From the NCBI GenBank assembly GCA_021404685.1, contig QWHC01000007.1, positions 124,001 to 188,000 of the forward strand: a DNA stretch of 64,000 nt, in the 5' to 3' direction. A program made the translations under genes and the position numbers. Shown here one piece after another: positions 2,647 through 64,000 of the stretch. How positions within the stretch are numbered: position 1 is the first letter of the stretch; each line of letters starts with the position of its first letter. Source of the DNA: Chloroflexi bacterium CFX4 (GTDB lineage Bacteria; Chloroflexota; Anaerolineae; Aggregatilineales; UBA2796). The notes under the pieces are model-generated. The model was not told where the DNA came from, did not search any database, and saw only the letters and a list, made by a program, of their open reading frames with translations.

Positions 2647-2775
2647 AGTGTTTTGCCTTAGGAATGCGTGCTGTACGGTTGGTTGGCGCTTGAAAACGCT
2701 ACTAACAGAAATCCAACCTTTTGAAAAGCGTACAGCGAAACGCATCAGAAGGCAAGTCTCGACTTTGGCATGGGA

Positions 2776-2804
2776 TTGCCTCAGGTAGGCTCTAAGGCTA
2801 TAAT
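2776..2804 (+). promoter_or_regulatory. Sigma-70-type promoter of trpS
   Basis: TTGCCT and a perfect TATAAT are separated by 17 nt, about 57 nt upstream of the trpS start. This is the best consensus promoter in the divergent TIR-FGE/trpS spacer. Confidence 0.6.
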
Positions 2805-2861
2805 CGCACTCATTGTGTAAGCGTTCGATGATGACTTTACGCTTGTTTTTTAGGGAGCCAT

Positions 2862-3893
2862 ATGCCCGAATCAACACCAGTGCGCCCACCGCGCATTTTA
2901 TCTGGCATTCAGCCGTCCGGTCAGTTGACGATTGGCAACTATCTCGGCGCGCTAAAGCAGTGGGTGCAACTCCAGACCGATTATGACTGCTACTACTGCA
3001 TTGTGGATATGCATGCCATCACCGTGCCGCAAGACCCAGCCGATCTGCGCGAAGGCACGCGCCGCAACGCTGCCCTGTACCTTGCCTGCGGCATTCAGCT
3101 TGAACATGCCACTGTCTTTGTGCAATCACACGTGACGGCACACGCCGAACTGGGCTGGATTCTGGGCTGCTACACGCCGATGGGCTGGCTGAACCGTATG
3201 ACACAATTTAAGGATAAGGCAGCCAAGCAGCAGGCAGAATCGGTTAGCGCGGGCTTGTTCACCTATCCCGCCCTGATGGCTGCCGATATTCTGCTCTATC
3301 AGGCTGATTTGGTGCCGGTGGGCGATGATCAGCGCCAGCACCTTGAGCTAACCCGCGATTTGGCGCAGCGCTTCAACAGTCAGTATGGCGAAACGTTCAC
3401 CATCCCCGACGCCTTCATTCCAAAAGCAGGTGCGCGCATCATGGGCTTGGATGATCCGCTGGCGAAGATGAGCAAGAGCGATCCAAGCGAATATCACGCC
3501 GTTTATATGCTGGATGAGCCTGATCGAATCAAGAAAAAGATTATGCGCGCCGTGACAGACTCAGGCAGCGGCATTCACTTCAGCGATGATCCACAAAAGG
3601 CGGGCGTGAACAACCTGCTAACCATTTATCAGGCGTTCACTGATGAGACAACAGAGGCGATTGAGGCGCGCTTTGCTGGCAAAGGCTACGGTGATCTGAA
3701 AAAGGCAGTGGTGGAGGCAACCGTCGAAGGGCTACGCCCCATTCAGGCGCGTTACCGTGAGCTGACGGCTGAAGGTGGGCATATTGATGCTGTGCTGGCG
3801 CAAGGTGCGGCAAAGGCGCGCCTCGTTGCCAACGCCACACTCCACGCGGTGCAGGATCGGGTTGGCTTCCTTGCGGCGGCGGATCGCGCATAA
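2862..3893 (+). CDS. trpS: Tryptophanyl-tRNA synthetase
   Basis: Class I aminoacyl-tRNA synthetase that charges tRNA-Trp with tryptophan in the cytoplasm. The 343 residues match the usual bacterial TrpS length of about 330-350. The HIGH-like signature lies in PSGQLTIGNYLGAL near residue 20 and the KMSKS signature in LAKMSKSDPS near residue 203. GDDQRQHLELTRDLA, typical of TrpS, is also present. An AGGGAG ribosome-binding site precedes the ATG. It heads a likely operon: the next gene starts 2 nt after its stop. Confidence 0.97.
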   Translation: MPESTPVRPPRILSGIQPSGQLTIGNYLGALKQWVQLQTDYDCYYCIVDMHAITVPQDPADLREGTRRNAALYLACGIQLEHATVFVQSHVTAHAELGWILGCYTPMGWLNRMTQFKDKAAKQQAESVSAGLFTYPALMAADILLYQADLVPVGDDQRQHLELTRDLAQRFNSQYGETFTIPDAFIPKAGARIMGLDDPLAKMSKSDPSEYHAVYMLDEPDRIKKKIMRAVTDSGSGIHFSDDPQKAGVNNLLTIYQAFTDETTEAIEARFAGKGYGDLKKAVVEATVEGLRPIQARYRELTAEGGHIDAVLAQGAAKARLVANATLHAVQDRVGFLAAADRA

Positions 3894-4652: not shown

Positions 4653-5396
4653 ATGCGTCTCGCTATGCTCTCGGATATTCACGGCAACCTGCACGCCCTG
4701 GAGGCGGTACTTGCCGACCTACGTGCTTATGCCGCGCCTGACCGCACATGGGTGCTTGGTGATCTATGTTTAATTGGCGCACACCCTGCCGAATGTTTGC
4801 AGCGCGTGCGCGAACTGCCACAGGTGCAGGTGATCAGCGGCAACACAGATCGGCGCTTGGTGACAGGGCAGCGCAGCCATTATCGCCCAAAGGATGCTGA
4901 AGAATGGGCGAAATTTGCAGGTTGGCTCACACAGCGCGATGCCTGCCACAACTGGACGATCAGCCAGCTTAGCTACACCGACTATGAATACCTTGCCGCT
5001 TTGCCGCCTGAAATTGAGCTGCATGTGCCAAACTATGGTTGGCTGCTTGGCTATCATGGCGCGCCCGGCAACGATGAGGCGAACCTGCTGCCTGATACGC
5101 CCGCTGATGAAGTGCTGGATTACTTCCTAGACCGTGAAGGACGCTTTGGCGTTGGTGGACACACCCATATCCCAATGGATCGGGATTTAGGCACGTGGCG
5201 CGTGGTGAACCTTGGCAGCGTTGGCTTGCCTAAAGATGATCCACGCGCAGCCTATGCCATCGCCACCTTTGAAAATGGCGGTGTGCAGGTCGAGATTCGG
5301 CGCGTTGCCTACGATGTGGAGGCTGCCCTCACCGCCCTAGCGCAATCAGGTAACACAGCCTGGCAATGGGCAGCCGAAAACTTCAAGCACGCCTAA
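4653..5396 (+). CDS. YfcE/MJ0936-type metallophosphoesterase
   Basis: A calcineurin-like phosphoesterase of 247 residues, expected to use two metal ions to hydrolyse phosphodiesters or phosphomonoesters. The metal-binding motifs appear in order: SDIHGN (residues 7-12), LGDLC, SGNTDRR, GYHG and GGHTHIPM. The GNTD variant in place of GNHD is usual in this subfamily. The ATG at 4653 is chosen because it places the first metal motif at the N-terminus, as in the family, and lies 4 nt after the preceding stop. The substrate is not predictable. Its stop overlaps the convergent kinase-WD40 gene by 4 nt. Confidence 0.9.
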   Translation: MRLAMLSDIHGNLHALEAVLADLRAYAAPDRTWVLGDLCLIGAHPAECLQRVRELPQVQVISGNTDRRLVTGQRSHYRPKDAEEWAKFAGWLTQRDACHNWTISQLSYTDYEYLAALPPEIELHVPNYGWLLGYHGAPGNDEANLLPDTPADEVLDYFLDREGRFGVGGHTHIPMDRDLGTWRVVNLGSVGLPKDDPRAAYAIATFENGGVQVEIRRVAYDVEAALTALAQSGNTAWQWAAENFKHA

Positions 5397-8300
5397 AGCA
5401 GGTTGCGCTTACGCCCGCTGCCTGAAGGTTGCCCTTCCAAACGGACAAGGTAGACAGCCCCTTTGTTATCGCCAATGGCGAAATCTATACCGTTGGGCGC
5501 CACTGCCGCGCATGTGATCGGGCTGGCAACGCGGAAAATTGCCATAACCTGCTGTGTGCGCGCCGCGTAGATACGCAACCAACGATCCGCATCGGCGCTG
5601 AAGATCAGGCTGCCATCCCGCGTGTAGCCGCAGGCAGTGATCGGTGCGCTGCCGCTGCGCGCAAAGGTTGCCATCGCGCCGCTGCGCCGATCAAACAGGC
5701 TGAGCGATCCGTCCGCAGTGCCAAGCAGCACGAGGCTGCCTTCGGGCTGAAAAGCAACCGCAGTGTAAGTGATTAGCGGATCGGCAAAGGTGTGGATCAG
5801 CTCACCTTTTGCCAGCGACCATAAAGACGCGCTGCGATCTTTGCAGAGCGTGAGCAGTAACTCGTCGGTTGGGCTGAACAGGCAAGCCGTTACGGCGTCA
5901 CGGTGACCTTTCAAACTCAGGACGAGTTGCCCGCTCTCAGCGTCAAACAGCCGTACTGTTCGGTCTGCGCCGCCAGAGGCAACCAGCCAGTTTGGGCGTG
6001 GCATAGTACCAATCTTCAACGGCTTCAAGCTGAAGGCACATGCCAGCACAGAGTCCAGATGCCCGCCAAACTGCCGCAGCAGCGCGCCGCGATCAACATC
6101 CCATGCGCGCAATGTACGGTCGCTGCTGGCTGTGAGCGCCATACGTCCATCGGCGCGCACCGCAAGCGCATAAATGCCGCCTACATGCCCACGCATGGTC
6201 TGGACGCGCTCACCTGTATCTGCGTGCCAAACGCGCACCTCACGGTCTTGCGAAGCGCTGATCAAACGTGCAGAGTCGGGCGTGAAAGCGATGCCCTGCA
6301 CTGTTGCACCGTGTGCCTCCACAGGGATGCGGTCTGCCTCCGGCAGAGTCCAAAGGCGCAGCGCACCCTCGCGCCCGCCAGAGAGCAATCTGCCAAGCGG
6401 ATCGAAGGCGCAGGCGCTCACCGCTGCCCGATGCCCTGTGAAGTGCGCCAACAACCGCCCATTTTCCACTTCCCACACCCGTACCGTCCGATCTTCGCTG
6501 GCAGCGGCGATCAACAAGCGCCCTGCCAGAAAGGTGAGCGTGATCGCTGTAATCGCGCCTGTGCCGCCCGCCAGAGTTCGCAGTAGCGCACCGTTGCGCG
6601 CATCCCACAGGCAAACTTGCCCATCAGCGCCCCCGCTTGCCACTAACGGATGCCGATCCTCCAAGCCTACACACGCCGTCACCGCGCCGCGATGCCCTTC
6701 AAGCGTATGCAGCAACACATTGCCCGCCGCGTCCCACAGGCGCAAGCTGCCTTCTGCATCACCTGAGATCGCCACGCGCTTGCCGCCTGCACCAACGGCA
6801 AAGGCGCAGCACGTTACAGCGGCAGGATGTTCATAGAAAGCGGCGCGCAACTGCCCATTGCTCGTGTCCCACAGGCGCAGCAGCCGATCTTCACAAGCAG
6901 TTAGAGCAAGGGTGCTATCGGCACTCAGCGCGCAGCCCAACACCGCCCGCCTATGGTCTGTCCAGAGATGCAGGCGCATGTCACGCCCTAAATCCCAGAG
7001 GTGCGCTGTGCCATCGGCAGCCGCGCTCAGCGCATAGCCCCCATCGCTGCTCAAGGCGCAATCGGTCAGGGCTGCTGTGCCAGCATTGTTGCTGTGTGCC
7101 AGCCATTCACGGCGCAGCACGCCATCTTGCCACAAACGTAAGAACCCATCGGCACAGGCAGCCAGCCAGCACACGCTTGAGGTTGCCCCAGAATCCACAG
7201 CAAGCCGACTGACGGCGCTGCCCTCAGCCTGGCTGGCGGCAAGGGCAAGTGGCGCTGAGCCTTGCCAGATCGCCAATGATTCATTAGGCGGTGCGCTGAA
7301 TGGTGACCACACAACGCGCAGCCATGTGCCGCGCCAAGCCGCGGCGGCAGCGCGCAGCGACTCGGCAAGGGCAGGCACATTCTGCAAGCGGTTATAGAGC
7401 TGCCCAAACAGCGCGCTGGAATCACCGCCGATGCTCGGAATAGCAGCCCGCACTGCCTGCGCGATGCTCTCTAAGGCGGCGGCAGGCGCCAAATGCCCGT
7501 CGTCAAGCAAGGCAAGGCGCACCTCAATCAGATCATCCAAAATATCCGCCACCGAGACGCGCTTCAAACGTGCCGTTAAGAAGCTGAGGTCGGTCAGCAG
7601 GTCAAATGCGGCAAGGCTTCCTTCAGCGCGCAGCACATGCGCGAGCAAATGCTGCCAGGCATAAAGTTCCATCGCCTCAGGGTCATCGCGCCGCAATGCC
7701 TGATCAAGGCGTGCGTGGGCAACACGGATGCCATCGGCGGCGTTCTCCAACAGCCAATAGCGTAAGGCGCTGTGCGTTAGCTGCCAATCCGTCCTGCTGC
7801 TTGTCTCTTCCAGCAGTGGGCGCAAACGCGCTAGGTGTTTGGGCAAAGCGGCTGGCTCAAGGGTCAGCGCGCTTGCCAGCAAACGGCTAGGAAGCGGCGC
7901 GCGGGCAGCCGCCAGCACATGCAACACCTCAAGATCGTCTGGGCTAAGACGCGCCACCAAATAGGCAAAGAGTGCCTCTAGGCTTTCAGGCAAGCTGCCC
8001 AGTTCAGCAAGGCTAATGTGCTGGTGTGCCAAGCAGGCAGTGACCACATTCAGATAAAGCGGGTTGCCCTGTGCCTTCTCAATCAGCGCGGCAAGGTCAA
8101 CCTCACCACCGCTGAGGTTCGGCATCAATGCAGCGAAATGCGTGCTGAGCGTGGCATACAGCGCATTGCGATCTTCGTCGTTATCCGCGTGCAGGGCAAG
8201 GCGTTGAGCATTGCGGAAAAGCGGCTCTAGCGTAGGATGCGGCGCGGCTGCCACCACAAGGCGCAGCACATCGGGAAAGTTCTGGAGCGTGGCGCGCACC

Positions 8301-9640
8301 AGATCGGCGATGGTGCTGCCGTAGTGTTCAAAGGCAGCGTCTAGTGCATCCACAAAGAGGAAGATCGGCGGATTAGGTGGCAATTGGCTGAGTGGCGTTA
8401 GCACGCGGTTCTCGAACGCCTCACGCGGATCAACCAACACTTCGCGCAAGGCGTCGCCGGTGGGCGCATCCTGATCAGCGGGCAGAAAAGCTGCCAACTG
8501 CCACGCGACCGAGTCAACAAAAGTGCGCGGATCGAGCGTGCGCGCCTGCCCGCTGATCAAATCGTAGCGGGCAACGCGCTCACCAACCAGATCGGCAAAG
8601 CGGCGCATAAGCGTGCTTTTGCCAATGCCGTGCGCGCCAACCACGTACAGCACAGGGCTGGCGGCACGGTCGGTGCGCCATGCACGGAAGGCATCCAACG
8701 CCCATTGGCGTTCAGCGAGCGCCTGCGTTGCACTGAACTGCGGTAGCCGTGGCAGCATCTCTGTGCTGAGGGTGGCTGCATCAGTGCGCGGTGTGTGCGG
8801 CACGGCACGGCGTTCGCCGCTAGGGCGCAAGGCACTGGTGAAGGCACGCGCCAATTCACCTGCTGACGGATAGCGATCATCGGGCAGTTTGGCAAGGGCG
8901 CGCTGAATGACGCTATCCACAGCGGTTGGCAGGTCAGTGCGGTGCGCGCCAAGCAGCGGCGGCAGGTCGTTCAGGTGCTTATACATCAATGAGAAAATGT
9001 TTTCGGCATGGAAAGGCGGTTCGCCGCAGAGCATCTCATAGAGCATCGCGCCTAAGGCGTAAACATCGGTCTGTGGCATCACGTTGAGCGCTTGCCACTG
9101 CTCCGGCGACATATAGGACGGCGTGCCGACTGCTTCACCTGTCCGCGTGAGTCCATGTGTGCCTGTCAGCTTGGCGATGCCGAAATCGCACAGGAAAGCG
9201 TTGCCTTCCCGATCCAACAAGACGTTGTGCGGCTTCATATCACGGTGAATAACGTTTCGCGCATGAGCATAGTCTAGGGCAGCGGCAATCTGGCTGATCA
9301 GGCGTTCCACCTCTGGGATGCTCAAATTCTTGGCGCGCACACGGCTGTTCAGGCTGCCACCATCCAGATAACGCATCACAATGTAGGGAAAACCGTCTAC
9401 CTGTCCATAGTCATAGATAGGCAGAATGTGGATATGCTCTAGGTTGGCAATAATCTGCACTTCGCGCACAAAACGCTCAAGTTCGGGTGAGCCTTCCTCT
9501 GTGCGCTCACTCATAACCTTGATCGCCACTTCGCGGTTTACTGTCTGTTGGCGTGCCTTGTAGACGGTGGACATGCCGCCGCGCCCAATAAAGGCGGTCA
9601 GTTCATAGTTGCCGAGCGTTTTGCCAACCAAATCAAACAC
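5393..9640 (-). CDS. Ser/Thr protein kinase - P-loop ATPase - WD40 repeat protein
   Basis: A 1,415-residue signalling protein. Residues about 8-270 are a Hanks-type kinase with an intact glycine loop (GRGGMSTVYKA), VAIK lysine, HRDMKPHN catalytic loop (near residue 130) and DFG. Residues about 300-500 are a STAND/AAA-like NTPase with Walker A GAHGIGKST (near residue 333) and Walker B FLFVDALD (near residue 423). A helical region follows, then roughly a dozen WD40 repeats from about residue 780 to the end, many with recognisable (V)WD-type ends. No membrane segment is seen. GTG at 9640 is preferred (AGAGG 7 nt upstream, kinase motif at the right distance); an in-frame ATG at 9670 is the alternative. 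Such proteins are thought to couple ligand sensing by WD40 and NTP-driven oligomerisation to phosphorylation. The target is unknown. Confidence 0.9.
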   Translation of the reverse strand: MFDLVGKTLGNYELTAFIGRGGMSTVYKARQQTVNREVAIKVMSERTEEGSPELERFVREVQIIANLEHIHILPIYDYGQVDGFPYIVMRYLDGGSLNSRVRAKNLSIPEVERLISQIAAALDYAHARNVIHRDMKPHNVLLDREGNAFLCDFGIAKLTGTHGLTRTGEAVGTPSYMSPEQWQALNVMPQTDVYALGAMLYEMLCGEPPFHAENIFSLMYKHLNDLPPLLGAHRTDLPTAVDSVIQRALAKLPDDRYPSAGELARAFTSALRPSGERRAVPHTPRTDAATLSTEMLPRLPQFSATQALAERQWALDAFRAWRTDRAASPVLYVVGAHGIGKSTLMRRFADLVGERVARYDLISGQARTLDPRTFVDSVAWQLAAFLPADQDAPTGDALREVLVDPREAFENRVLTPLSQLPPNPPIFLFVDALDAAFEHYGSTIADLVRATLQNFPDVLRLVVAAAPHPTLEPLFRNAQRLALHADNDEDRNALYATLSTHFAALMPNLSGGEVDLAALIEKAQGNPLYLNVVTACLAHQHISLAELGSLPESLEALFAYLVARLSPDDLEVLHVLAAARAPLPSRLLASALTLEPAALPKHLARLRPLLEETSSRTDWQLTHSALRYWLLENAADGIRVAHARLDQALRRDDPEAMELYAWQHLLAHVLRAEGSLAAFDLLTDLSFLTARLKRVSVADILDDLIEVRLALLDDGHLAPAAALESIAQAVRAAIPSIGGDSSALFGQLYNRLQNVPALAESLRAAAAAWRGTWLRVVWSPFSAPPNESLAIWQGSAPLALAASQAEGSAVSRLAVDSGATSSVCWLAACADGFLRLWQDGVLRREWLAHSNNAGTAALTDCALSSDGGYALSAAADGTAHLWDLGRDMRLHLWTDHRRAVLGCALSADSTLALTACEDRLLRLWDTSNGQLRAAFYEHPAAVTCCAFAVGAGGKRVAISGDAEGSLRLWDAAGNVLLHTLEGHRGAVTACVGLEDRHPLVASGGADGQVCLWDARNGALLRTLAGGTGAITAITLTFLAGRLLIAAASEDRTVRVWEVENGRLLAHFTGHRAAVSACAFDPLGRLLSGGREGALRLWTLPEADRIPVEAHGATVQGIAFTPDSARLISASQDREVRVWHADTGERVQTMRGHVGGIYALAVRADGRMALTASSDRTLRAWDVDRGALLRQFGGHLDSVLACAFSLKPLKIGTMPRPNWLVASGGADRTVRLFDAESGQLVLSLKGHRDAVTACLFSPTDELLLTLCKDRSASLWSLAKGELIHTFADPLITYTAVAFQPEGSLVLLGTADGSLSLFDRRSGAMATFARSGSAPITACGYTRDGSLIFSADADRWLRIYAARTQQVMAIFRVASPITCAAVAPNGIDFAIGDNKGAVYLVRLEGQPSGSGRKRNLL

Positions 9641-9818
9641 AATGTGCCTCTCTTCTCGCTGCCGATCCATGCCTAGTATATCCCGTTTAGCAGCCCTAGA
9701 CAGGGCGCGATGTAGGGCTGCGCCTTGGCATATCCTGCGCCCACTTGCCTCTGGCAGAACACACCGACTTGCGCTAAAATAGAACGCTCGTTCGGAGATA
9801 GTGGAAGGCAGTAGCGAC

Positions 9819-12800
9819 ATGCCAGCTTTTGAATTAGACGCCCCTTACCAACCTACCGGCGACCAGCCGCAGGCAATTGAAAAGTTAGTGGACGGCGTGC
9901 GGCGCGGCTTGCGCCACCAGACCTTGCTTGGCGCCACTGGCACAGGCAAAAGCCTCGGTTACAATGATCCTGTTTTTATTGTCGAAGTGTGTGACGGAAT
10001 CCAACAGCCAAAGGTTATTCCCATCGGTTCTTTTATTGATGAGCTGTTGCTAGTTCATCAACAGCAGGTTAGGCATAAAGGTGACACAGACACTTTAGAG
10101 CTAACCAACGCTATACCACGCTATTATACTCAGGCATTTGATCCTGAAACACGCCAAGTTGCTTTGCACCCCATCCAATCCGTCCTACGGCACGACACAC
10201 CGACTGAGATGTACCACTTGCAAACTGCCTGCGGACGTGAGGCAACGCTAACAGGCGATCACAATTTATGGGTGATGCGCGATGGTTACTTGAGGTTAAT
10301 TCGCACCGCAGACGCACTATCAACTGACTATGTACCGCTACCCGAAAGACTATTGGGCGAATCAGACCTACATACATTGGATTTGCGCGAAATTGTGACA
10401 GGGCGGCGCGTGGTTACAGTTGAGGGGCGGCAAGTCTTTGCGCTCAGCCAAAATGCTACTATGAAACTAGACTGTGAAATGCCTCTTTCGCCCGCTGTAC
10501 TGAAGCTCTTTGGTTATTACATTGCAGAAGGATGCAGCCAGTCTGGTTATCTCATCATCGCCAACCGCAACCCACACATACGCGGCGAAATTGAGGCAGC
10601 CTGCCAAGCGCTAGGCATTCGTTTCTCAGTCCGCCCATCGTCCGATTATCAGATTTCATCAGGTGCGCTGACAGATGCCCTGCATGAATTATGTGGTGGC
10701 AACGCACGCGAAAAGCAACTGCCGCCTTTTTGGTCACAATTATCACAGGTCAATTTGGCACATCTGCTGCGCGCCTATTTTGATGGGGATGGTTTTGTAG
10801 AACACGCCAGTGCAGTATGTGCAATGACAGCGAGTTCGCAACTTGCCTCGGATTTAGCCTACGCCTTGCTGCGCTTTGGTATTTGGGCGCATATTTCTAA
10901 ACGTTGGAAGCGGGCGACCAACACGGATCATATCGGCGATTGGTATTATCTGATCACGATTTCTGGTCAGGCTGATCTGAGGCGTTTTGCTGAATATATT
11001 GGTTTTTCGCTCAGCTACAAGATGGAAGCACTCCAGCGCCATTTTGCCGCCAAAGAACATTCAAACGTAGATATTGTTCCAATCAAGGGCGCAGATTTAC
11101 GTTGGTTACGGATTACGCTTGGCTTGACGGCAAGGCAACTTGGTGACTTGTGTGGTATCTCGCGGTCAGGCATACAACTTTTTGAGGCAGGCAAACGCAA
11201 GCCACGCCGCAAACGCCTGATTGCCCTTTTGAATGCACTTCGAAAGGTTGCGACCGAACAAGGGCAGGTACCTGAAAGGTGGCAATTTATCTGGGAGCAG
11301 ATGCGCTATGCGTGCAATCTGCGCTGGACACCGATTAAATCCGTTACTCCTGCTGCCTATCCATATCCTTACGTCTACGATTTGAGCGTTCCTGAAGTTG
11401 AGAACTTTCTTGCCGGCAATGGTGGCTTTTTTGTGCATAATACCTACGCCGTGGCGCAGGTTGTGCAGCAAATCCAGCGACCGACGCTCGTGCTGGCGCA
11501 CAACAAGACGCTTGCCGCGCAGCTCTATGCCGAGTTCAAAGAGTTCTTCCCGCGCAACGCCGTCGAGTACTTCGTCAGCTACTACGACTACTATCAGCCT
11601 GAGGCATATGTGCCGCGCCTTGATCTCTACATCGAGAAAGAGTCGGACATTAACGATGAGATTGAGCGCTTGCGCCTTGCCGCAACAGCCGCCTTGCTGA
11701 CACGGCAAGACGTCCTGATCGTGGCTTCTGTCTCGTGCATCTACGGCTTGGTCAGCCCGCAAACATGGGCAAAGGTGTTGCTGCCGCTCCAAGTTGGGCA
11801 GACCATCCGCCGCAACGATGTGCTGCGCCACTTAGTGACGATCCTTTATGAGCGCAACGACGTTGACCTGAAGCGTGGCGCCTTCCGTGTGCGCGGCGAT
11901 ACGCTGGAGATCATGCCCTCCTACCTAGAGACTGCCTACCGCATCGCCTTCTTTGGCGATGAGATCGAGCGCATTGTGCATTTCGACCCGATGACGGGCG
12001 AGATTCTGGAAGAAGTGACGCGCATAGACATCTTTCCCGCCAAGCACTATGTGGCAGAGAGCGACACGGTCAAGGCTGCCATTCATGATATCGAGGTGGA
12101 ACTTGAGGAACGCCTTGCTGAGTTGGAGCGCGAAGGCAAACTGCTAGAGGCGCAGCGCTTAAAGCAGCGCACCCTGTTCGACCTAGAGATGATCCGCGAG
12201 ATCGGCACATGCAGCGGCATTGAAAACTATTCGCGCCACTTTGATCGTCGTGCGCCCGGCACACCGCCCTATACCCTGCTGGACTATCTGCCCGAAGATT
12301 ACCTGCTCGTCATTGATGAGAGCCACATCGCTGTGCCGCAAGTGCGCGGCATGTACCACGGTGACCGTTCGCGCAAGGTGACGTTGGTAGACTACGGCTT
12401 CCGCCTGCCCTGTGCGATGGATAACCGCCCGCTGAACTTTGAGGAGTTTGAGGCGCGCATGGGACAGACCATCTACACCAGCGCCACGCCGGGTCCTTAC
12501 GAACTGGAACACTCGCAGCAAGTGGTGCAGCAGATCATCCGCCCAACGGGCATTGTTGACCCTGAGATCAGCGTGCGCCCGATTGAAGGGCAGGTGGACA
12601 ACTTGCTTAAAGAGATCACCATCCGCACCAAGCGCGGCGAACGCGCCCTTGTTACCACGCTGACCAAGCGCATGGCAGAAGATTTGGCGCAGTACCTGAC
12701 CGAGATGGGCGTGCGCGTCCACTACCTGCACAGCGAGATTGACACCTTGCAGCGCATTGAGATTCTGCGCGATCTGCGGCTGGGCGTCTATGATGTGGTG

Positions 12801-13355
12801 GTTGGCATTAACCTGTTGCGCGAGGGCTTGGACTTGCCGGAAGTCTCGCTGGTTGCCATCCTAGACGCGGATAAGGAAGGTTTCTTGCGCTCGGAGCAAG
12901 CGCTCATCCAGACCATTGGGCGTGCGGCGCGCCATGTCAACGGGCAGGTGATCATGTATGCTGACCGCATGACCGACTCGATGCAACGCGCCATCGCCGA
13001 AACTGAGCGCCGCCGCGCCGTACAGGTTGCCTACAACGAACAACACGGCATCACACCTGCCAGCATCATCAAACAGGTGCGCGACCTAACCGACCGTGTG
13101 AAGGCGCAGCAGGCTTTTGATGCGAAGGAAGACGCCGCACCGACTCCAACGCCGCAAGACATGAGCCGCGCCGAACTTGATAAGCTCATCCGTGAGCTAG
13201 AGAAAGAGATGAAGCAGGCGGCGAAGGACTTGGCGTTTGAGAAGGCGGCAGCCTTGCGCGATCAGGTACTTGAACTGCGAAAGGTGCTGGTGCTGAAAGC
13301 GGATAAGAACGACCTGCTGGCAGTTGGCGCCGCTGCCGACGTTTTTGAGGAATAG
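9819..13355 (+). CDS. uvrB: Excinuclease ABC subunit B (UvrB) precursor with intein
   Basis: DNA-damage recognition helicase of nucleotide excision repair, partner of UvrA and UvrC. The host protein, once the intein is removed, is about 681 residues, the normal UvrB size. Visible motifs are the P-loop, [15 protein letters not shown] (beta-hairpin region), VIDESH (Walker B), [32 protein letters not shown], and a C-terminal UVR motif around [15 protein letters not shown] that binds UvrC. The P-loop reads GATGTGK, then the intein, then TYAVAQ, so splicing restores GTGKT. The ATG at 9819 follows a GGAAGG; a GTG at 9801 is in frame but lacks a ribosome-binding site. The gene is divergent from the kinase-WD40 gene. 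Confidence 0.96.
9951..11441 (+). mobile_element. Intein with LAGLIDADG endonuclease and XRE-like HTH, inserted in the UvrB P-loop
   Basis: A 497-residue in-frame insertion that begins at Ser (SLGYNDPVF, block A) directly after the P-loop Lys and ends in FFVHN, with Thr as the +1 residue. Block B (TGDHNLWV) supplies the TxxH motif near residue 100. Two LAGLIDADG-type dodecapeptides follow: LFGYYIAEG (about 186-194) and LRAYFDGDG (about 272-280). A helix-turn-helix segment ([21 protein letters not shown], residues about 389-409; read as an XRE fold) follows, then blocks F ([15 protein letters not shown]) and G. All the usual splicing residues are in place, with Ser1 in place of Cys1, the block B Thr and His, the penultimate His and the terminal Asn, so splicing should be active. 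Its base composition looks more AT-rich than the flanking uvrB, consistent with horizontal gain. Confidence 0.95.
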
Positions 13356-56713: not shown

Positions 56714-57817
56714 CTAGACGCCTGCCTGAAGCGTTGCCGCGAAGAACGTCCAGGCCACCACCACCAGCACAATCGCCACCACAGCCGCCACAAGGCGCGG
56801 CGGAATGCGGCGTCCTTTACGCTCCACAGGCACCTCACCAAATTTCGTCCGCAGTTCTTTGGCAAAGGTTCGCACGTCTTTATGGCGGCGCGTGGGCGAC
56901 CTATCAATTGCCTGCGTCACGATCATGTTGATGTCGCTGCTGAGGTCGGTGCGATCCAGCGGCGGCGGTGAACTCGTCCGCACTTCCTGACGAACGTCTT
57001 CAGGGCGGCGCAGGCGGAAGATGTAGGGCGGACGCCCTTTCAGCATCTCATAGAGCAGCACGCCCAAGCCATACACATCGGTCTGTGCGCCATATTGCCC
57101 TTTGGGTCCGTCAATCAGCAGTTCGGGCGCAATGTAGGCAGCCATGCTGTAGCGCTCTAGCTGCTCAAAATCAATAGCGTTCGGATCATTGGCAAGGCTT
57201 AAATCCATCAGCAGCGGGCGCGGAATGCCATCACGGTCGTAGCGCACCATGATTGTATCTGGGCTAAGGTTTAGGATGAGGTGCTGCGCTTTGACATGGA
57301 CGAAGGCAGTCACATCTGCCATATTGATGGTGAGCCATGCAGCGTGCTGATACCACGGTTGCGGATTTTTGATGAGCAGATCGCGTAAGAACTCGCCTTC
57401 AGCGAAATTGTAAACAATGTAGTACTTGGTCTCGTTCCCAAAGACTGTTTTGCCATAGGGGCGCTGTTTGGCGTTGGCATCGCCCACCAGATAGGGCGGT
57501 TGTAGGACAGGTAACATCGGGTGACCACCTGCACTGGTGAGTTTCGCCATCAGTGCCGCCTCGCGCTTGATGATCTCCTCACAGCCGTTGTGCGCCACCT
57601 TGATCAAAATTGGGATGGGCTTGTTCTTCACCTTGCGGCGCGCCTCATAGAGCGCAGCCGTCTTTAGCACACGCACAAGGCGCACAATCTCAATATCACC
57701 CAAGAACTCGCCGTAGTCGAAAATTACCGAAAGTTCGCCCGCTTCCGAAATGCGAGAGGAGCCCCACATGCTGAATAAGGGCGTGATGGTATCACTTTTG
57801 GGACAGTAGCGTTTCAT
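56714..57817 (-). CDS. Membrane-anchored protein-kinase-fold protein, probable pseudokinase (EssB-like analogue)
   Basis: A 367-residue protein with a kinase fold at about residues 28-325 and one C-terminal membrane helix (about 337-358), leaving a tail of about 10 residues outside. The ATP-lysine (ILIKVAH) and helix-C Glu (KREAALMAKL) remain, and APE is kept in AYIAPELL, with DVYGLGVLLYEMLKGRPP. The HRD loop reads LILNLSPDTI, so the catalytic Asp is Asn and the Mg-binding Asn is Thr, and DFG is DLS. It should be inactive or very weak. It is divergent from the EssC-type ATPase; in Firmicutes type VII systems EssB is also a pseudokinase followed by a membrane helix. The link is inference. Confidence 0.85.
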   Translation of the reverse strand: MKRYCPKSDTITPLFSMWGSSRISEAGELSVIFDYGEFLGDIEIVRLVRVLKTAALYEARRKVKNKPIPILIKVAHNGCEEIIKREAALMAKLTSAGGHPMLPVLQPPYLVGDANAKQRPYGKTVFGNETKYYIVYNFAEGEFLRDLLIKNPQPWYQHAAWLTINMADVTAFVHVKAQHLILNLSPDTIMVRYDRDGIPRPLLMDLSLANDPNAIDFEQLERYSMAAYIAPELLIDGPKGQYGAQTDVYGLGVLLYEMLKGRPPYIFRLRRPEDVRQEVRTSSPPPLDRTDLSSDINMIVTQAIDRSPTRRHKDVRTFAKELRTKFGEVPVERKGRRIPPRLVAAVVAIVLVVVAWTFFAATLQAGV

Positions 57818-57976: not shown

Positions 57977-60900
57977 ATGCCAGAGTATATTAATCGTCCG
58001 CCGCGTATTCAGCCGGAGCTGCCCTCTGGCGAGATAGATATCCCACAGCCGCCACCATTACAGAACACTTCCGGTCAGCAAACGCTGATCACCGTTGCCA
58101 TCCCGTTGATTACAATCTTGGGCTATTTGGTGGTGAGTGGCAGTGGTGGTCGCGGTGGCAGCGTGCTGTTTGTGCTGCCAATGGCGCTTTCTGTGATGGC
58201 AACCAGCGTGCTGGCTGTTTTCACATGGCTGCGCGAACGCCGCCTTGATAAAGAACGCCAAGCCGCTTATGCCCGCCGCCTGATCGAGATGCGGCGGCAA
58301 ATGATCGCCTCCCATGATAAGCAGCGCGCCTTCTACCTGCACAACAATCCTGATATGGATACGATTGTGGCGATGGTGGGCGGCGGCGAAGGCGCTGACG
58401 AATCGCGCTTGTGGGAACGCCGTGTAGATGACAATGACTTTGGCGCCATTCGTTTGGGCATGGGGTCTATGCCTTCAACCGTTGTCTATCGGGTGGATGC
58501 ACAGGATGCCAGCGCGCCGCAAACGCCGGACGCCGTCAAGCTGGCAGAAGATTCCGAGATCGTCCACGATATTCCGATCACCATCACGCTGCGCCCACGC
58601 TTGGGCGATGATGATCCAAGCGCACTGGATGACAAAAGCACGGCTCTCGGCATTAAAATTCCTTCAGTCGGTCGCTATGCAATTGGGGTTGCTGGCGCTG
58701 ATGTAGAGCGCACCAGTGATTTTGTGCGCGCCATGATCGTCAGCTATACCGCCTTCCATTCGCCCAACGACACGCGGGTATACGTGATCGGTGGCAGCGA
58801 CCGTCAAAAGGCATGGGACTGGGCGCGCTGGCTGCCGCACTGTAACACCAGCCGCAACGACTCTGGCAAGGGCGATCTGCTCGCCTTCGATCCGCGCAAG
58901 ACGCGCCGTATGTGGGATTTGCTGCAAGGCGAACTCCAGCGCCGCGCCCTACGCGCCGAAGATGAAGATGCTGGCGACGTGACGCTGCCCTTTATGGTGG
59001 TGGTCATTGACGCGCTTTCGCAGGCGGAAGATTCGCCGTTGCACAGCCTTAGCACTGAAGCAGCTGTTGCCCTGCTGCTGACACGCGGCGCAAGGCTTGG
59101 CGCAGCCGTCATTTTCGTTGTGCCAGAACGCGATCAAATTCCAAGTGAGTGCCGTGCCATCGTCGAGATGGAGATGGTCAGCGAATCACCTGCCTTCCGC
59201 TATGCCGAAATCGGCTTGAACTCAATGCGCTACGACGGCAGGGCAGACCTGATCGAAGAACGCACCGCCGATGATAAATTTGCCCGTAAACTTGCCTCCA
59301 AGATGGTGCGCGCTACGTTTGGTGCGGATGTGGCAACCTCTGTCAACCTCTTGGAACTGTTCACCTTGCTTGAGGACGGCAAGCGCAGCTACGACAGCCC
59401 GAATTCTTTCCCACTGCTGGAATGGTGGCGCGATAGCCGCAAGCCCGATAAATCCGAGTGGCTGCGTGTGCCAATTGGCTTGATGGCAGGCAACAAGGTG
59501 CGCTCGCTAACCTACGCCGCCGATATTGACGGTGTGCATGGCATGATCGCCGGCACAACCGGTTCAGGTAAATCTGAACTGCTCATCACCATCGTGGTTG
59601 GCTTGGCAATGCGCTATGATCCAAGCGTGGTGAACTTCGTGCTTGCCGACTATAAAGGTGGCACGGCATTTGATCCGTTCAAGCCGTTGCCACACGCCGT
59701 AGATGTGCTGAGCAGTCTGAATGGCTTGGCAGGCGTCCGCACCTTCACCGCCACCAAAGCAGAGATGAATCGGCGCAGCAAAATGCTGGCTGATACCAAT
59801 ACCAAGCACATTGTTCACTACCGCCAGAAAAACCTGCACGAAACACGCGAACCGTTCCCGTTCCTGTTCATCATCGTGGACGAGTTCGCCGAAATGGTGA
59901 AGGAAAATCCTGATTTTAAGGGCTACCTCGACTCCATCACACGCTTGGGACGTGCGCTTGGCGTCATGCTGATCCTTGCGACGCAGCGCCCTGCTGGCGT
60001 GGTGACCGATCAGATGCGCTCCAACATCAAGTGGCGCGTCTGCTTGCGCGTGGAGACGGCTGAGGACTCGCGTGAGTTGCTCAAGCGCTCTGATGCTGCC
60101 TTCTTGCCCAACAATATTCCCGGTCGTGGCTACTTGCAGGTTGGTAACGAGAACGTCGAGCTGCTGCAATTGGCACGTGCCGGCGCACCCTACACGGGCG
60201 ACCAAGAGGCGGCTGATCCGGCTGTGATTTGGCGTTCGCGGGGCAACCTGAGCGGCGTGATTGACGTGGCAGCCGCTGCTGCTGCGCGCAGTGCCGCTGC
60301 TGAAGTGCCAACCATCTCCGATCTGTTGGTGGCGCGCATGGCACGCCTTGCCGCTGATAACGATGACGTGGTGGCACAGAAAAAACCATGGCCCGATCCA
60401 CTGCCCGTTAAGCTCTCGCTAGATATGGAGCGCTTGCCCGGCGATATTAAGCCCAACCCGAACCTGCCCCTCAACGGCGCAGTGATTGACTGGATGGAAG
60501 AAGAAGAACCCGACTGGCGCAACGCCATTGACTGGCGTGAGCGTGCCATGCGTGCGCGCATCGGTCTGATTGATAACCCTGCCAACGCCGAACAACTGCC
60601 CCTGACGCTGGACTTCAATCGTGGTCATGCGATGGTCTTCGGCGGCAGTGGCTGGGGTAAAACGATCCTGCTTCGCACGCTGATCACGTCATTGGCTGCC
60701 ACGCACTCGCCCGCCGAACTGCACATTTACATCTTTGACTTTGGCGGCAAAGGCTTGGACGTGGTGCGCGATCTGCCGCATGTTGCCTCTTATGCGCTGC
60801 CCAGCCAAGATGAGCGCGTCACGGCGATCATGCGCCGCATTCAGGATGAACTGGAACAGCGCAAAGCCCTGCTCAGCCAAACGCGTACCGATAACATCGC

Positions 60901-63900
60901 CGAATATAACGCGGCGCACCCTGAAAAACCTGTGCCAGCCATGCTGGTTGTCATTGATAACTTCATGGAACTGCGCGAGTCTTACGAGTCGTTGCTGCCC
61001 GAACTGACCACCTACCTGCGCGATGGGCGCGCCAACGGCGTGTACTTCATCTTCACCTCGCAGCAGCCGAACTCCATCGCCAACAAGATGTTCAACATGA
61101 TCACGGAGCGCATGACCTTCCGCCTGCCCGATGTAAGCGACTATTCGGGTGTGGTTGGGCGTGTTGGCTCACAACTCCCCGATGTTGGCGGGCGCGGCTT
61201 CATTCAATATGAGGGCGAGGCGCTCGAAATGCAGATCGCCATGCCCATCAGCCTGACGGTCGAAGATGAGCAGGCGGGCTTGGATAACACCAAGAAGCTG
61301 GCGCTCTTAGTAGACCGCATGAACAAAGCCTGGGGCGACCGTCCACGTCCGCAGAGCGTTGACCTTGTCAAGGCGCTCTCGCTGATGGAACTCTTTGAAC
61401 TGCTCGATAAGCGCGATTACAAGACCGTGCTGGAGTTCCCCATCCTAGAATGGTGGCGCGAAAGCCGCAAGGCAAGCAAGTCCGAGTGGCCCAAAGCACC
61501 CATCGGCTTGGTGACGGGCAATAAAGTTCGCTCGATCATCTTTGACCAGAACATAGACGGTGTGCATGGCATGGTTGCCGGCACGACTGGTTCGGGTAAA
61601 TCCGAACTGCTGCTAACACTCGTGGCAGGCGTCGCCATGCGCTACGATCCGAGCGTGGTCAACTTCATCTTGGCGGACTATAAAGGCGGTAGCGCCTTCA
61701 CGCCTGTGGAAGCACTGCCACACGCCGTAGATATCGTGACTAACCTGCAAGGCATGGCAGGTGCGCGCACGTTCATCGCTATGCGCGCCGAGATGAACCG
61801 CCGTTCGGCGCTTCTAGCGGTCACTTCCACCAAGCATATTGTGGAATATCGCCAGAAGAATCTGCACGAAACACGCGAACCCTTCCCGTTCCTGTTCGTG
61901 ATTGTGGACGAATTCGCCGAAATGGTGAAGGAAAATCCAGAGTTCAAGGGTAACCTCGACTCGATCACGCGTTTGGGACGTGCGCTTGGCTTGTTCCTGA
62001 TCTTGGCGACGCAGCGCCCGGCTGGCGTGGTGACCGACCAAATGCGCTCCAATATGAAGTGGCGCGTCTGCCTGCGTGTGGAAACCGCACCCGACTCCCG
62101 TGAGTTGCTCAAGCGTGATGATGCTGCTTACCTGCCCAACACCGTTCCCGGTCGTGGCTATGTGCAGGTCGGTAACGATAACATTGAGCTGATGCAGGTG
62201 GCGCGTGCCGGCGGTCCTTACAGCGGTGCGCTGCCTGACTATTTGCAGGAACAGTATAGCGGTGATGTACCTGCGCTCACCGACGTGCTTTCCTACATGA
62301 TGCGCCACATGATGGAAACCAACCCTGATGTGTTGGAGCAGAAGAAGCCTTATCCCGATCCACTGCCCAAGCTGCTCACCCTTGATCAGCAACGCTTGGA
62401 GAAGGATTTTGAGGACAATCCGCTCATGCCACTCAGCCGCCCACTCGCCGAGTGGATGGCAGGGCGCGGTAAGTGGCAGGGCATTGATTGGGCGCGCAAC
62501 GGAATGCGTGCCTCGGTCGGCTTGATTGATAATCCGGCACGTGCTGAGCAGCTAGCGCTCACCTTCAACTTTAATCGTGGTCATGCGGTGGTGGCAGGCG
62601 CTAGCGGTTCGGGCAAAACAATCCTGCTCCGCACGGTTGCCTCTGCGCTGGCTGCCACACACTCGCCCAAAGAACTCCACATCTACATGATGGACTTTGG
62701 CGGTAAAGGCTTGGATGTGCTGCTTGATCTGCCGCACGTTGCCTGTTCGATCTACCCTTCGGAAGATGACCGTGTGGCTGCTTTGCTGCGCCGCCTTTCC
62801 GATGAGCTGGAGCAGCGCAAGGCATTGCTGAGCCAAGCCCGTGCTGACGATCTGGCAATCTTCAATGCACAGTATCCTGATAAGGCGCTGCCTGCCATTC
62901 TGGTGCTGATTGATAACTTTGCCGAGTTCCGCGAGAACTATGAGAACCTGCTACCCGAACTGACCGCCATTGTGCGCGATGCACGTGCCAACGGCATTCA
63001 CTTTATGGTGACGACCCAGCAGATCGGCGCGCTGCCCAGCAAACTCTACAATATGTTTGCGACGCGGCTCACCTTCAAGCTGACAGATGCCTCTGAATAT
63101 GGCATGGTCGTTGGGCGTAACATGCCAAACCTGCCCGATATTCCAGGACGCGGCTTTATCCCTGTGGATAACGAACCACTGGAAATGCAAGTGGCGCAGC
63201 CGCTCAGCGTGAGCGAAGAAGAAGCTAAGCAGGGCTTGGATGCCACCAAGAAGCTGGCAAAGGTCGTGGCGATTATGCAAGAGGCATGGGGCGAACGCCC
63301 AGTGCCGCAGAGCGTTGACCTTGTCCGCCAGCTCTCACTGATGCAGCTTTTCGAGTTCCTCGATAAGCGCGAATACAAATCCGTGCTGGACTTCCCTATC
63401 CTAGAGTGGTGGCGCGAAAGCCGCAAGCCTGAAAACGCTGAATGGTTGAAAGCGCCCGTTGGCTTGGTAACGGGCAACAAAGTGCGCTCGCTCATCTTTG
63501 ACCAGCAGATTGACGGTGTGCATGGCATGGTCGCCGGCACGACTGGCTCTGGTAAATCTGAACTACTGCTGACGGTCGTGGCAGGGCTTGCTATGCGCTA
63601 CGATCCGAGTGTGGTCAACTTCATCTTGGCAGACTACAAAGGCGGTAGCGCCTTCGATCCATTCAATGGCTTGCCGCACGCTGTGGACATCGTGACCAAC
63701 CTGCAAGGCTTGGCGGGCGCACGCACCTTCACCGCTATGAAGGCGGAAATGAACCGCCGTTCGGCGTTGCTGGCTGTCACGCAGACCAAGCACGTTGTGG
63801 ATTACCGCCGCCGTAACCTGCATGAGCGCCGTGAGCCGTTCCCGTTCCTGTTCGTGATTGTGGACGAATTCGCCGAAATGGTGAAGGAAAATCCAGAGTT

Positions 63901-64000
63901 CAAGGGCAACCTCGACTCGATCACGCGCTTGGGACGTGCGCTCGGCGTCTGCCTGATCTTGGCAACGCAGCGCCCTGCCGGCGTGGTGACTGACCAAATG
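57977..64000 (+). CDS. essC: EssC/EccC-type type VII secretion FtsK/SpoIIIE ATPase, expanded (3' end outside window)
   Basis: An open frame of at least 2,008 codons without a stop. Two N-terminal membrane helices (about residues 37-55 and 61-85) are followed by a basic helix and the EccC-like LWERRVDDNDFGAIRLG (near 144). A degenerate ATPase-like domain lacks a P-loop (VVVIDAL near 342). The motor domains then follow: A1 (P-loop GTTGSGKS, residue about 526; IIVDEFAEM), B1 (GGSGWGKT, about 889; VVIDNFMEL), A2 (about 1202), B2 (GASGSGKT, about 1541) and A3 (about 1854), cut by the window end. Canonical members have three. No FHA domain is seen. GGGGAG precedes the ATG. The protein should drive export of WXG100-type or LXG-type substrates. 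The gene family is firm; the symbol is by analogy. Confidence 0.93.
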   Translation, partial: MPEYINRPPRIQPELPSGEIDIPQPPPLQNTSGQQTLITVAIPLITILGYLVVSGSGGRGGSVLFVLPMALSVMATSVLAVFTWLRERRLDKERQAAYARRLIEMRRQMIASHDKQRAFYLHNNPDMDTIVAMVGGGEGADESRLWERRVDDNDFGAIRLGMGSMPSTVVYRVDAQDASAPQTPDAVKLAEDSEIVHDIPITITLRPRLGDDDPSALDDKSTALGIKIPSVGRYAIGVAGADVERTSDFVRAMIVSYTAFHSPNDTRVYVIGGSDRQKAWDWARWLPHCNTSRNDSGKGDLLAFDPRKTRRMWDLLQGELQRRALRAEDEDAGDVTLPFMVVVIDALSQAEDSPLHSLSTEAAVALLLTRGARLGAAVIFVVPERDQIPSECRAIVEMEMVSESPAFRYAEIGLNSMRYDGRADLIEERTADDKFARKLASKMVRATFGADVATSVNLLELFTLLEDGKRSYDSPNSFPLLEWWRDSRKPDKSEWLRVPIGLMAGNKVRSLTYAADIDGVHGMIAGTTGSGKSELLITIVVGLAMRYDPSVVNFVLADYKGGTAFDPFKPLPHAVDVLSSLNGLAGVRTFTATKAEMNRRSKMLADTNTKHIVHYRQKNLHETREPFPFLFIIVDEFAEMVKENPDFKGYLDSITRLGRALGVMLILATQRPAGVVTDQMRSNIKWRVCLRVETAEDSRELLKRSDAAFLPNNIPGRGYLQVGNENVELLQLARAGAPYTGDQEAADPAVIWRSRGNLSGVIDVAAAAAARSAAAEVPTISDLLVARMARLAADNDDVVAQKKPWPDPLPVKLSLDMERLPGDIKPNPNLPLNGAVIDWMEEEEPDWRNAIDWRERAMRARIGLIDNPANAEQLPLTLDFNRGHAMVFGGSGWGKTILLRTLITSLAATHSPAELHIYIFDFGGKGLDVVRDLPHVASYALPSQDERVTAIMRRIQDELEQRKALLSQTRTDNIAEYNAAHPEKPVPAMLVVIDNFMELRESYESLLPELTTYLRDGRANGVYFIFTSQQPNSIANKMFNMITERMTFRLPDVSDYSGVVGRVGSQLPDVGGRGFIQYEGEALEMQIAMPISLTVEDEQAGLDNTKKLALLVDRMNKAWGDRPRPQSVDLVKALSLMELFELLDKRDYKTVLEFPILEWWRESRKASKSEWPKAPIGLVTGNKVRSIIFDQNIDGVHGMVAGTTGSGKSELLLTLVAGVAMRYDPSVVNFILADYKGGSAFTPVEALPHAVDIVTNLQGMAGARTFIAMRAEMNRRSALLAVTSTKHIVEYRQKNLHETREPFPFLFVIVDEFAEMVKENPEFKGNLDSITRLGRALGLFLILATQRPAGVVTDQMRSNMKWRVCLRVETAPDSRELLKRDDAAYLPNTVPGRGYVQVGNDNIELMQVARAGGPYSGALPDYLQEQYSGDVPALTDVLSYMMRHMMETNPDVLEQKKPYPDPLPKLLTLDQQRLEKDFEDNPLMPLSRPLAEWMAGRGKWQGIDWARNGMRASVGLIDNPARAEQLALTFNFNRGHAVVAGASGSGKTILLRTVASALAATHSPKELHIYMMDFGGKGLDVLLDLPHVACSIYPSEDDRVAALLRRLSDELEQRKALLSQARADDLAIFNAQYPDKALPAILVLIDNFAEFRENYENLLPELTAIVRDARANGIHFMVTTQQIGALPSKLYNMFATRLTFKLTDASEYGMVVGRNMPNLPDIPGRGFIPVDNEPLEMQVAQPLSVSEEEAKQGLDATKKLAKVVAIMQEAWGERPVPQSVDLVRQLSLMQLFEFLDKREYKSVLDFPILEWWRESRKPENAEWLKAPVGLVTGNKVRSLIFDQQIDGVHGMVAGTTGSGKSELLLTVVAGLAMRYDPSVVNFILADYKGGSAFDPFNGLPHAVDIVTNLQGLAGARTFTAMKAEMNRRSALLAVTQTKHVVDYRRRNLHERREPFPFLFVIVDEFAEMVKENPEFKGNLDSITRLGRALGVCLILATQRPAGVVTDQM
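59348..61381 (+). repeat. Motor repeat unit 1 (A1-B1) of the EssC-like gene
   Basis: A 678-codon unit running from LLELF to just before LMELF. It holds an A-type domain (P-loop at 59552, Walker B with Glu) and a B-type domain (P-loop at 60641, Walker B ending in Asp-Asn). It is the most diverged of the three units. Confidence 0.85.
61382..63337 (+). repeat. Motor repeat unit 2 (A2-B2) of the EssC-like gene
   Basis: A 652-codon unit from LMELF to just before LMQLF, with P-loops at 61580 and 62597. Its A part is close to unit 3 at DNA level: the block around 61889-61940 is almost identical to 63837-63890. Confidence 0.88.
63338..64000 (+). repeat. Motor repeat unit 3 (A3, partial) of the EssC-like gene
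   Basis: The unit begins at LMQLFEFLDKREY and has a P-loop at 63536. The window ends shortly after the LATQRPAGVVTDQM motif, before any B-type domain, so it cannot be said whether a B3 domain follows. Confidence 0.88.

What the first reader, a model, noticed from the sequence alone, without database searches (positions are those of the whole stretch)
57977..64000. Type VII secretion ATPase with an expanded A-B-A-B-A motor array
The N-terminus is that of EssC/EccC (two membrane helices, then LWERR...DF). Five intact P-loops in one frame are seen directly (59552, 60641, 61580, 62597, 63536), and the frame is still open at the window end. Known EssC/EccC proteins carry three motor domains, plus a degenerate one near the membrane. 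This one appears to have gained motors by duplicating an A-B pair. If translated whole, it would change the stoichiometry of the secretion motor.
Basis: partly seen in the sequence, partly recalled or inferred. Interest (0 to 1): 0.85.

Follow-up and report, generated by a model that had tools for sequence, protein, structure and literature searches.

The report
Seven-motor type VII secretion ATPase
A bacterium of the phylum Chloroflexota encodes a protein-export ATPase with seven motor domains in a row instead of the usual three, three of them apparently able to burn ATP instead of one; the same count recurs across the phylum, so it is a real and conserved design that could show what one working unit of this export motor is.

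Summary
The gene starts at 57977 and runs 2,541 bases past the window end to a stop (2,854 aa, single frame). It has seven FtsK/SpoIIIE motors, A1-B1-A2-B2-A3-B3-C, plus the degenerate N-terminal domain. NCBIfam EssC, EccCa and EccCb models score far above cut-off; FtsK does not. The gene lies in a T7SS-like locus: a membrane-anchored pseudokinase upstream, a YukD-FHA fusion downstream, and WXG100 genes beside it in relatives. It is not an assembly artefact: repeats are only 70-78% identical in DNA, and I counted seven motors in 28 species of Chloroflexota, including cultured Herpetosiphon. One relative has five; none has four, six or eight. Every A motor examined (66/66) keeps Walker A and Walker B catalytic motifs; no B (0/66) or C (0/22) has the catalytic glutamate. 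So likely hydrolytic motors rose from one to three. Trees put the seven-motor proteins in three groups, each with its own private duplications. Most likely: three hydrolytic rings in series, each with a regulatory B ring, capped by the substrate-reading C ring. The anatomy is shown; the stacking and serial action are inferred. A new variant of a known kind; I found no description in the open literature searched.

The parts
57977..64000 (+). Seven-motor EssC/EccC gene; continues past the window to window-equivalent 66541 (2,854 aa in all)
58079..58240 (+). N-terminal region: two hydrophobic, probably membrane-spanning segments (about residues 35-88), no FHA domains before them
   Evidence: read from the sequence; no FHA among the 25 best Pfam families
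58676..59359 (+). Degenerate D0/DUF-like domain (about residues 234-461), no P-loop, Walker-B-like MVVVID at residue 340
   Evidence: TIGR03928/TIGR03924 cover it; motif scan; aligns with EccC structure 4NH0 from residue 239
59360..60181 (+). Motor A1 (residues 462-735), P-loop 59552, Walker B VDEF: catalytic set intact
60431..61270 (+). Motor B1 (819-1098), P-loop 60641, Walker B IDNF: no catalytic Glu
61394..62209 (+). Motor A2 (1140-1411), P-loop 61580, catalytic set intact
62387..63226 (+). Motor B2 (1471-1750), P-loop 62597, no catalytic Glu
63350..64000 (+). Motor A3 (1792-2063; ends at window-equivalent 64165), P-loop 63536, catalytic set intact. Beyond the window follow B3 (64355-65194), C (65219-66064) and a YukD-FHA gene (L015:15631-16332)
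56714..57817 (-). Membrane-anchored (C-terminal TM) pseudokinase, divergently transcribed neighbour; HRD catalytic Asp replaced by Asn
   Evidence: Pfam Pkinase; motif lost in all 31 homologues aligned; kinase fold predicted, pLDDT 86, best hits PknB/PknA

Best explanation
The gene encodes the EssC/EccC motor of a Chloroflexota type VII secretion system whose cytoplasmic motor array has been lengthened from three domains (A-B-C, i.e. D1-D2-D3) to seven (A-B-A-B-A-B-C). Shown: seven motor domains in one open frame; strict alternation of A motors with complete hydrolysis motifs and B motors that lack the catalytic glutamate; one C motor at the end; conservation under purifying selection; recurrence of exactly seven across the phylum; a T7SS-like gene neighbourhood. 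Inferred: six copies assemble, as for EccC, so that each A layer is a hydrolytic ring (18 competent sites instead of 6), each B layer is an ATP-binding, non-hydrolytic ring controlling the A ring beside it through the linker/pocket contact known from EccC, and the C layer reads the substrate signal. Binding at C would release the rings one after another, handing a long or multi-domain WXG100 substrate through three serial motors towards the membrane pore. Because counts of 3, 5 and 7 but no even number were seen, the working unit added is probably one A plus one B. The arrays most likely grew in at least three lineages separately, by duplication and unequal recombination inside the gene, which may still homogenise the inner copies.
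For: T7SS identity: (predicted A1-B1-A2 matches EccC 4NH0 over D1-D2-D3, TM 0.69/0.75, ranked above every FtsK). Seven motors. Motifs: A 66/66 Walker A, 66/66 Asp-Glu, 66/66 Gln, 63/66 Arg/Lys at the presumed finger; B 0/66 and C 0/22 with Asp-Glu. In solved EccC/EssC D1 has full motifs, D2/D3 are degenerate, D3 binds EsxB, and pocket-linker contacts auto-inhibit (PMC11154593, PMC6954902). Constraint: dN/dS about 0.02-0.06 for all three A motors, lower than the N-terminus. Count: 28 species with 7, one with 5, none with 4, 6 or 8+. Separate expansions: each group's motors form own clades and AU tests reject one shared clade of all long-form A (p 8.5e-4) or B motors (p 1.2e-3) and of A2+A3 (p 1.6e-54); N-terminal tree needs at least 4 changes of count. 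Locus: WXG100s, pseudokinase, EssC, YukD-FHA, vWA-FHA.
Against: No biochemistry or full-length structure: hexameric stacking and serial action are untested. The structure model covers three of seven motors, pTM 0.57, and AlphaFold was trained on EccC. Gene conversion between inner copies can make paralogues cluster by lineage, so the number of origins is less certain than the trees suggest; the AU groups were also named after the trees were seen. In this genome no WXG100 gene lies next to the ATPase (nearest about 6.8 kb past its end, a 391-407 aa protein; the others are scattered). Substrate size does not clearly track motor number in the small sample.
Confidence: 0.6

Rival explanations
1. 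The extra A-B pairs are a structural spacer: they lengthen the cytoplasmic channel or chamber (or tether it to the pseudokinase/FHA partners), with ATP turnover in A2 and A3 kept for assembly and not for pushing.
For: The EccC region beyond D0 is flexible and proposed to adopt different arrangements (PMC10765036); B and C motors are degenerate yet kept.
Against: The catalytic residues of A2 and A3 are conserved and these motors have the lowest dN/dS in the protein in most comparisons, which a pure spacer would not need.
Confidence: 0.2
2. The seven-motor form arose once in an early Chloroflexota ancestor; three-motor relatives are collapses by recombination between repeats, and concerted evolution makes each lineage's copies look privately duplicated.
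For: Same inner topology in all three groups, (A1,(A2,A3)) and (last B,(B1,B2)), expected if inner copies homogenise; A2/A3 share unusually long identical codon runs in several genes (22 codons here, p 0.0005), although the shuffle ignores amino-acid constraint. A 7-to-3 collapse needs only one crossover.
Against: Three-motor A and B domains are not nested inside any long-form paralogue clade; the N-terminal tree, outside the repeats, interleaves three- and seven-motor forms.
Confidence: 0.25
3. Assembly artefact or false tandem repeat.
For: Most genomes concerned are metagenome assemblies.
Against: 70-78% DNA identity between units, longest exact repeat 68 bp; same architecture in isolates (Herpetosiphon geysericola DSM 7119, H. 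giganteus DSM 589) and in highly contiguous genomes (G150, G006).
Confidence: 0.01
4. A DNA translocase (FtsK/SpoIIIE or conjugative coupling protein) and not a protein exporter.
For: Shared motor fold.
Against: FtsK, TraB, VirB4 and HerA models all far below cut-off; best solved relatives are EccC/YukB/EssC; YukD and WXG100 neighbours in the locus type.
Confidence: 0.01

Closest known systems
EccC of T7SSa (Thermomonospora curvata EccC, PDB 4NH0; mycobacterial EccC5)
   Same: Two TM segments at the N-terminus without FHA, degenerate D0, D1 with full catalytic motifs, degenerate D2 and D3; predicted A1-B1-A2 superposes on D1-D2-D3
   Different: One A-B pair there, three here; no EccB found in this genome
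EssC/YukB of T7SSb (TIGR03928)
   Same: Same motor order; YukD gene; pseudokinase partner comparable in kind to EssB
   Different: No N-terminal FHA domains on the ATPase (the FHA is on the YukD fusion); no EssB/YukC match above cut-off; seven motors
T7SSc-T7SSj subtypes of Garrett and Palmer 2024 (PMC11217815)
   Same: Core of WXG100, YukD-like and ATPase; kinase-like, FHA and vWA partners (e.g. TscD, TscE, TshM with a single C-terminal TM)
   Different: All described there have four NTPase domains (D0-D3) and occur in Bacillota or Actinomycetota; the paper's text does not mention Chloroflexi or Chloroflexota
Three-motor EssC of the same Chloroflexota locus type (e.g. L112, L116, L119, L121-L124, L127)
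   Same: Same locus order pseudokinase-EssC-YukD/FHA family
   Different: Only A-B-C

Membership tests
Type VII secretion ATPase EssC/EccC | Matches EssC/EccCa/EccCb profiles above curated cut-off | tested here: met
   1696/1101/869 bits vs 778/509/347
Type VII secretion ATPase EssC/EccC | Two TM helices then degenerate D0/DUF domain | tested here: met
   sequence; profile and 4NH0 alignment cover residues 234-461; TM segments judged by eye, no TM predictor was available
Type VII secretion ATPase EssC/EccC | D1 catalytic, D2/D3 degenerate | tested here: met
   A motors Asp-Glu, B and C motors not
Type VII secretion ATPase EssC/EccC | Three C-terminal motors (D1-D3) | tested here: not met
   seven motors; hence a variant and not a typical member
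Type VII secretion system | WXG100 proteins encoded | tested here: met
   22-25 matches in the genome; adjacent to the ATPase in many relatives such as Herpetosiphon; not adjacent here
Type VII secretion system | YukD/EsaB ubiquitin-like protein | tested here: met
   233-aa YukD-FHA fusion directly downstream; one of two above-cut-off matches in the genome
T7SSa (ESX) | EccB, EccD, EccE | tested here: not met
   EccB: no match in the genome; EccD and EccE not searched
T7SSb | EssB/YukC, EsaA, EssA; FHA domains on EssC | tested here: not met
   no YukC match above cut-off; no FHA seen on the ATPase; a pseudokinase with one TM is present but shows no sequence link to EssB; EsaA and EssA not searched
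FtsK/SpoIIIE DNA translocase | Matches FtsK equivalog model | tested here: not met
   184 bits vs cut-off 1566
Type VII secretion system | Secretes WXG100 proteins | not testable with these tools
   needs experiment

The most novel reading that the evidence does not exclude
Seven is a selected number: in at least three lineages the motor array grew independently to exactly A-B-A-B-A-B-C and stays there despite continuing recombination, because three hydrolytic rings in series make a long processive protein conveyor that no known T7SS has.
Probability: 0.35. Interest if true: 0.85.

Novelty: new variant of a known kind. Interest (0 to 1): 0.72.

Why it matters
How EccC/EssC couples ATP to export is open: D1 is the motor with full catalytic motifs, and the roles of D2 and D3 are only partly understood. 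Here the D1-D2 unit has been repeated two extra times, in the proteins counted always as a pair and always keeping D1-type motors catalytic and D2-type ones not. That points to D1-D2 as the functional unit and gives an internal experiment: inactivate one, two or three A motors in one protein and see whether secretion falls stepwise or all at once. It also shows that T7SS in Chloroflexota, a phylum mentioned only in passing in the T7SS papers found, has its own distinct form.

Tried and rejected
Assembly artefact: rejected. DNA translocase: rejected. One shared duplication with simple inheritance of copies: rejected by AU tests. One 5-to-7 step inside the window's family: undecided (p 0.07 for A2, 0.04 for A3). 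Link between motor number and WXG100 content: matches per genome 4-22 in seven-motor and 0-11 in three-motor relatives; too few genomes and unequal assemblies, not claimed. EssB relation of the pseudokinase by fold: best hits are ordinary bacterial kinases, EssB not in the top 50, so no specific support. A systematic count in other phyla was not possible (searches gave errors); the roughly 50 Actinomycetota/Bacillota hits are about 1,210-1,990 aa, shorter than any seven-motor form. Laying the whole genome in the script box was not available. Literature searches found no description of more than three motors plus D0; only open-licence papers were searched.

Full report
Observation. The window is bases 124001-188000 of contig 25 of its genome assembly. 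The open frame at 57977 continues through the window end to a stop 2,541 bases further on, giving one protein of 2,854 residues. The start is plausible because the N-terminal sequence (PPRIQPELPSGEI) is conserved in relatives. Pfam's FtsK_SpoIIIE model matches seven stretches.

Identity. NCBIfam scores EssC (1696 bits), EccCa (1101) and EccCb (869) far above their cut-offs, while FtsK, TraB, VirB4 and HerA models stay far below theirs. The nearest solved structures are EccC of Thermomonospora curvata, YukB and EccC5. A prediction of A1-B1-A2 (mean pLDDT 81, pTM 0.57) matches EccC 4NH0 best, across D1-D2-D3, TM-score 0.69 by query and 0.75 by target. AlphaFold was trained on such structures, so this supports fold and order, not assembly.

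Motor types. Within the protein A motors are 73-84% identical to each other and B motors 51-58%, but A against B only 22-27%. In 22 seven-motor proteins aligned, all 66 A motors have Walker A, Walker B Asp-Glu and the Gln; 63 have Arg or Lys at the presumed arginine-finger position (position assigned by alignment to EccC D1; finger role from memory). None of 66 B motors and none of 22 C motors has Asp-Glu; most have Asp-Asn. This is the published pattern for D1 against D2 and D3 (PMC11154593), with the D1-D2 part repeated three times.

Not an artefact. Units are 70-78% identical in DNA and the longest exact repeat is 68 bp, below the length of a short read. The same architecture occurs in genus and family relatives (2,846-2,862 aa) and elsewhere in the phylum, including the isolates Herpetosiphon geysericola DSM 7119 and H. 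giganteus DSM 589. Counting each species once, 28 have seven motors, one (MAG SJ7, a family relative) has five, and none has four, six or more than seven; many others have three. A few further proteins are cut by contig ends. dN/dS is low in every domain and lowest in the A motors.

Evolution. The N-terminal region, which lies outside the repeats, places seven-motor proteins in three groups: I (the window's family), II (Herpetosiphon, Oscillochloris, Chloroflexaceae, Caldilineales and others) and III (four Anaerolineales-type MAGs), with three-motor proteins between them; at least four changes of count are needed. In trees of A and of B motors each group's copies form their own clades (an earlier smaller set pointed the same way for groups I and II). 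Holding all long-form A or B motors together is rejected, and so is orthology of A2+A3, first B or last B across groups. In every group A2 and A3 fall together, and B1 and B2 fall together, with A1 and the last B apart. That is what a duplication A-B to A-B-A-B followed by duplication of the inner B-A block (or one unequal crossover) would give. Continued exchange is hinted at by a run of 22 identical codons between A2 and A3 here (p 0.0005) and 29 in L106, but the shuffle ignores amino-acid constraint. Concerted evolution could therefore inflate the number of apparent origins; I hold separate origins more likely because three-motor relatives never nest inside a long-form paralogue clade.

Locus. 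Beside the ATPase in nearly all loci aligned stands a gene of about 370 residues with a kinase domain and one C-terminal hydrophobic segment. It keeps the ATP-site lysine and the DFG-type aspartate, but in none of the 31 aligned the HRD aspartate: a pseudokinase, as EssB is, though without detectable relation to it. Downstream is a YukD-FHA fusion (in Herpetosiphon the FHA part is detected). Relatives add one to five small WXG100-type genes, longer proteins with an N-terminal WXG100 domain and a vWA-FHA protein. The genome holds 22-25 WXG100 matches, mostly on frames of 300-550 residues, and a second, ordinary three-motor EssC on contig 31 with a WXG100 gene beside it.

Mechanism. From published work, D3 binds the substrate signal and pocket-linker contacts auto-inhibit the motors (PMC6954902). 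The simplest reading is a longer stack: C reads the signal, and three A rings, each governed by its B ring, act in series. That even counts were not seen fits an A-B unit. None of the stacking, hand-over or rate claims has been tested.

Novelty. Reviews describe EccC/EssC with D0-D3 only (PMC10765036; PMC11217815). I found no report of longer arrays, but subscription papers were not searchable. Judgement: a new variant of a known kind, real, conserved and testable.

Noticed in passing
genome contig 31:124820-128758 (L021, L017, L018): A second T7SS ATPase of ordinary three-motor type (about 1,394-1,428 aa) with an adjacent 90-aa WXG100 gene: two T7SS in one genome.
   Followed up: partly
L205 (G446, a different family of the window's order): A contig-end fragment reads A-B-A, so a further lineage with an extended array may exist.
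   Followed up: no
window 9801-13355 (+): UvrB interrupted by an intein (splicing domain, LAGLIDADG endonuclease) that also contains an HTH domain.
   Followed up: no
window 5393-9820 (-): 1,475-aa protein kinase with a long C-terminal WD40 propeller array.
   Followed up: no
window 889-2889 (-): TIR domain joined to a formylglycine-generating-enzyme (FGE-sulfatase) domain, 666 aa.
   Followed up: no
L126 / L197 (G595): A record titled Candidatus Melainabacteria carries the same EssC as a genome the collection groups with Chloroflexota; the title is probably wrong.
   Followed up: no
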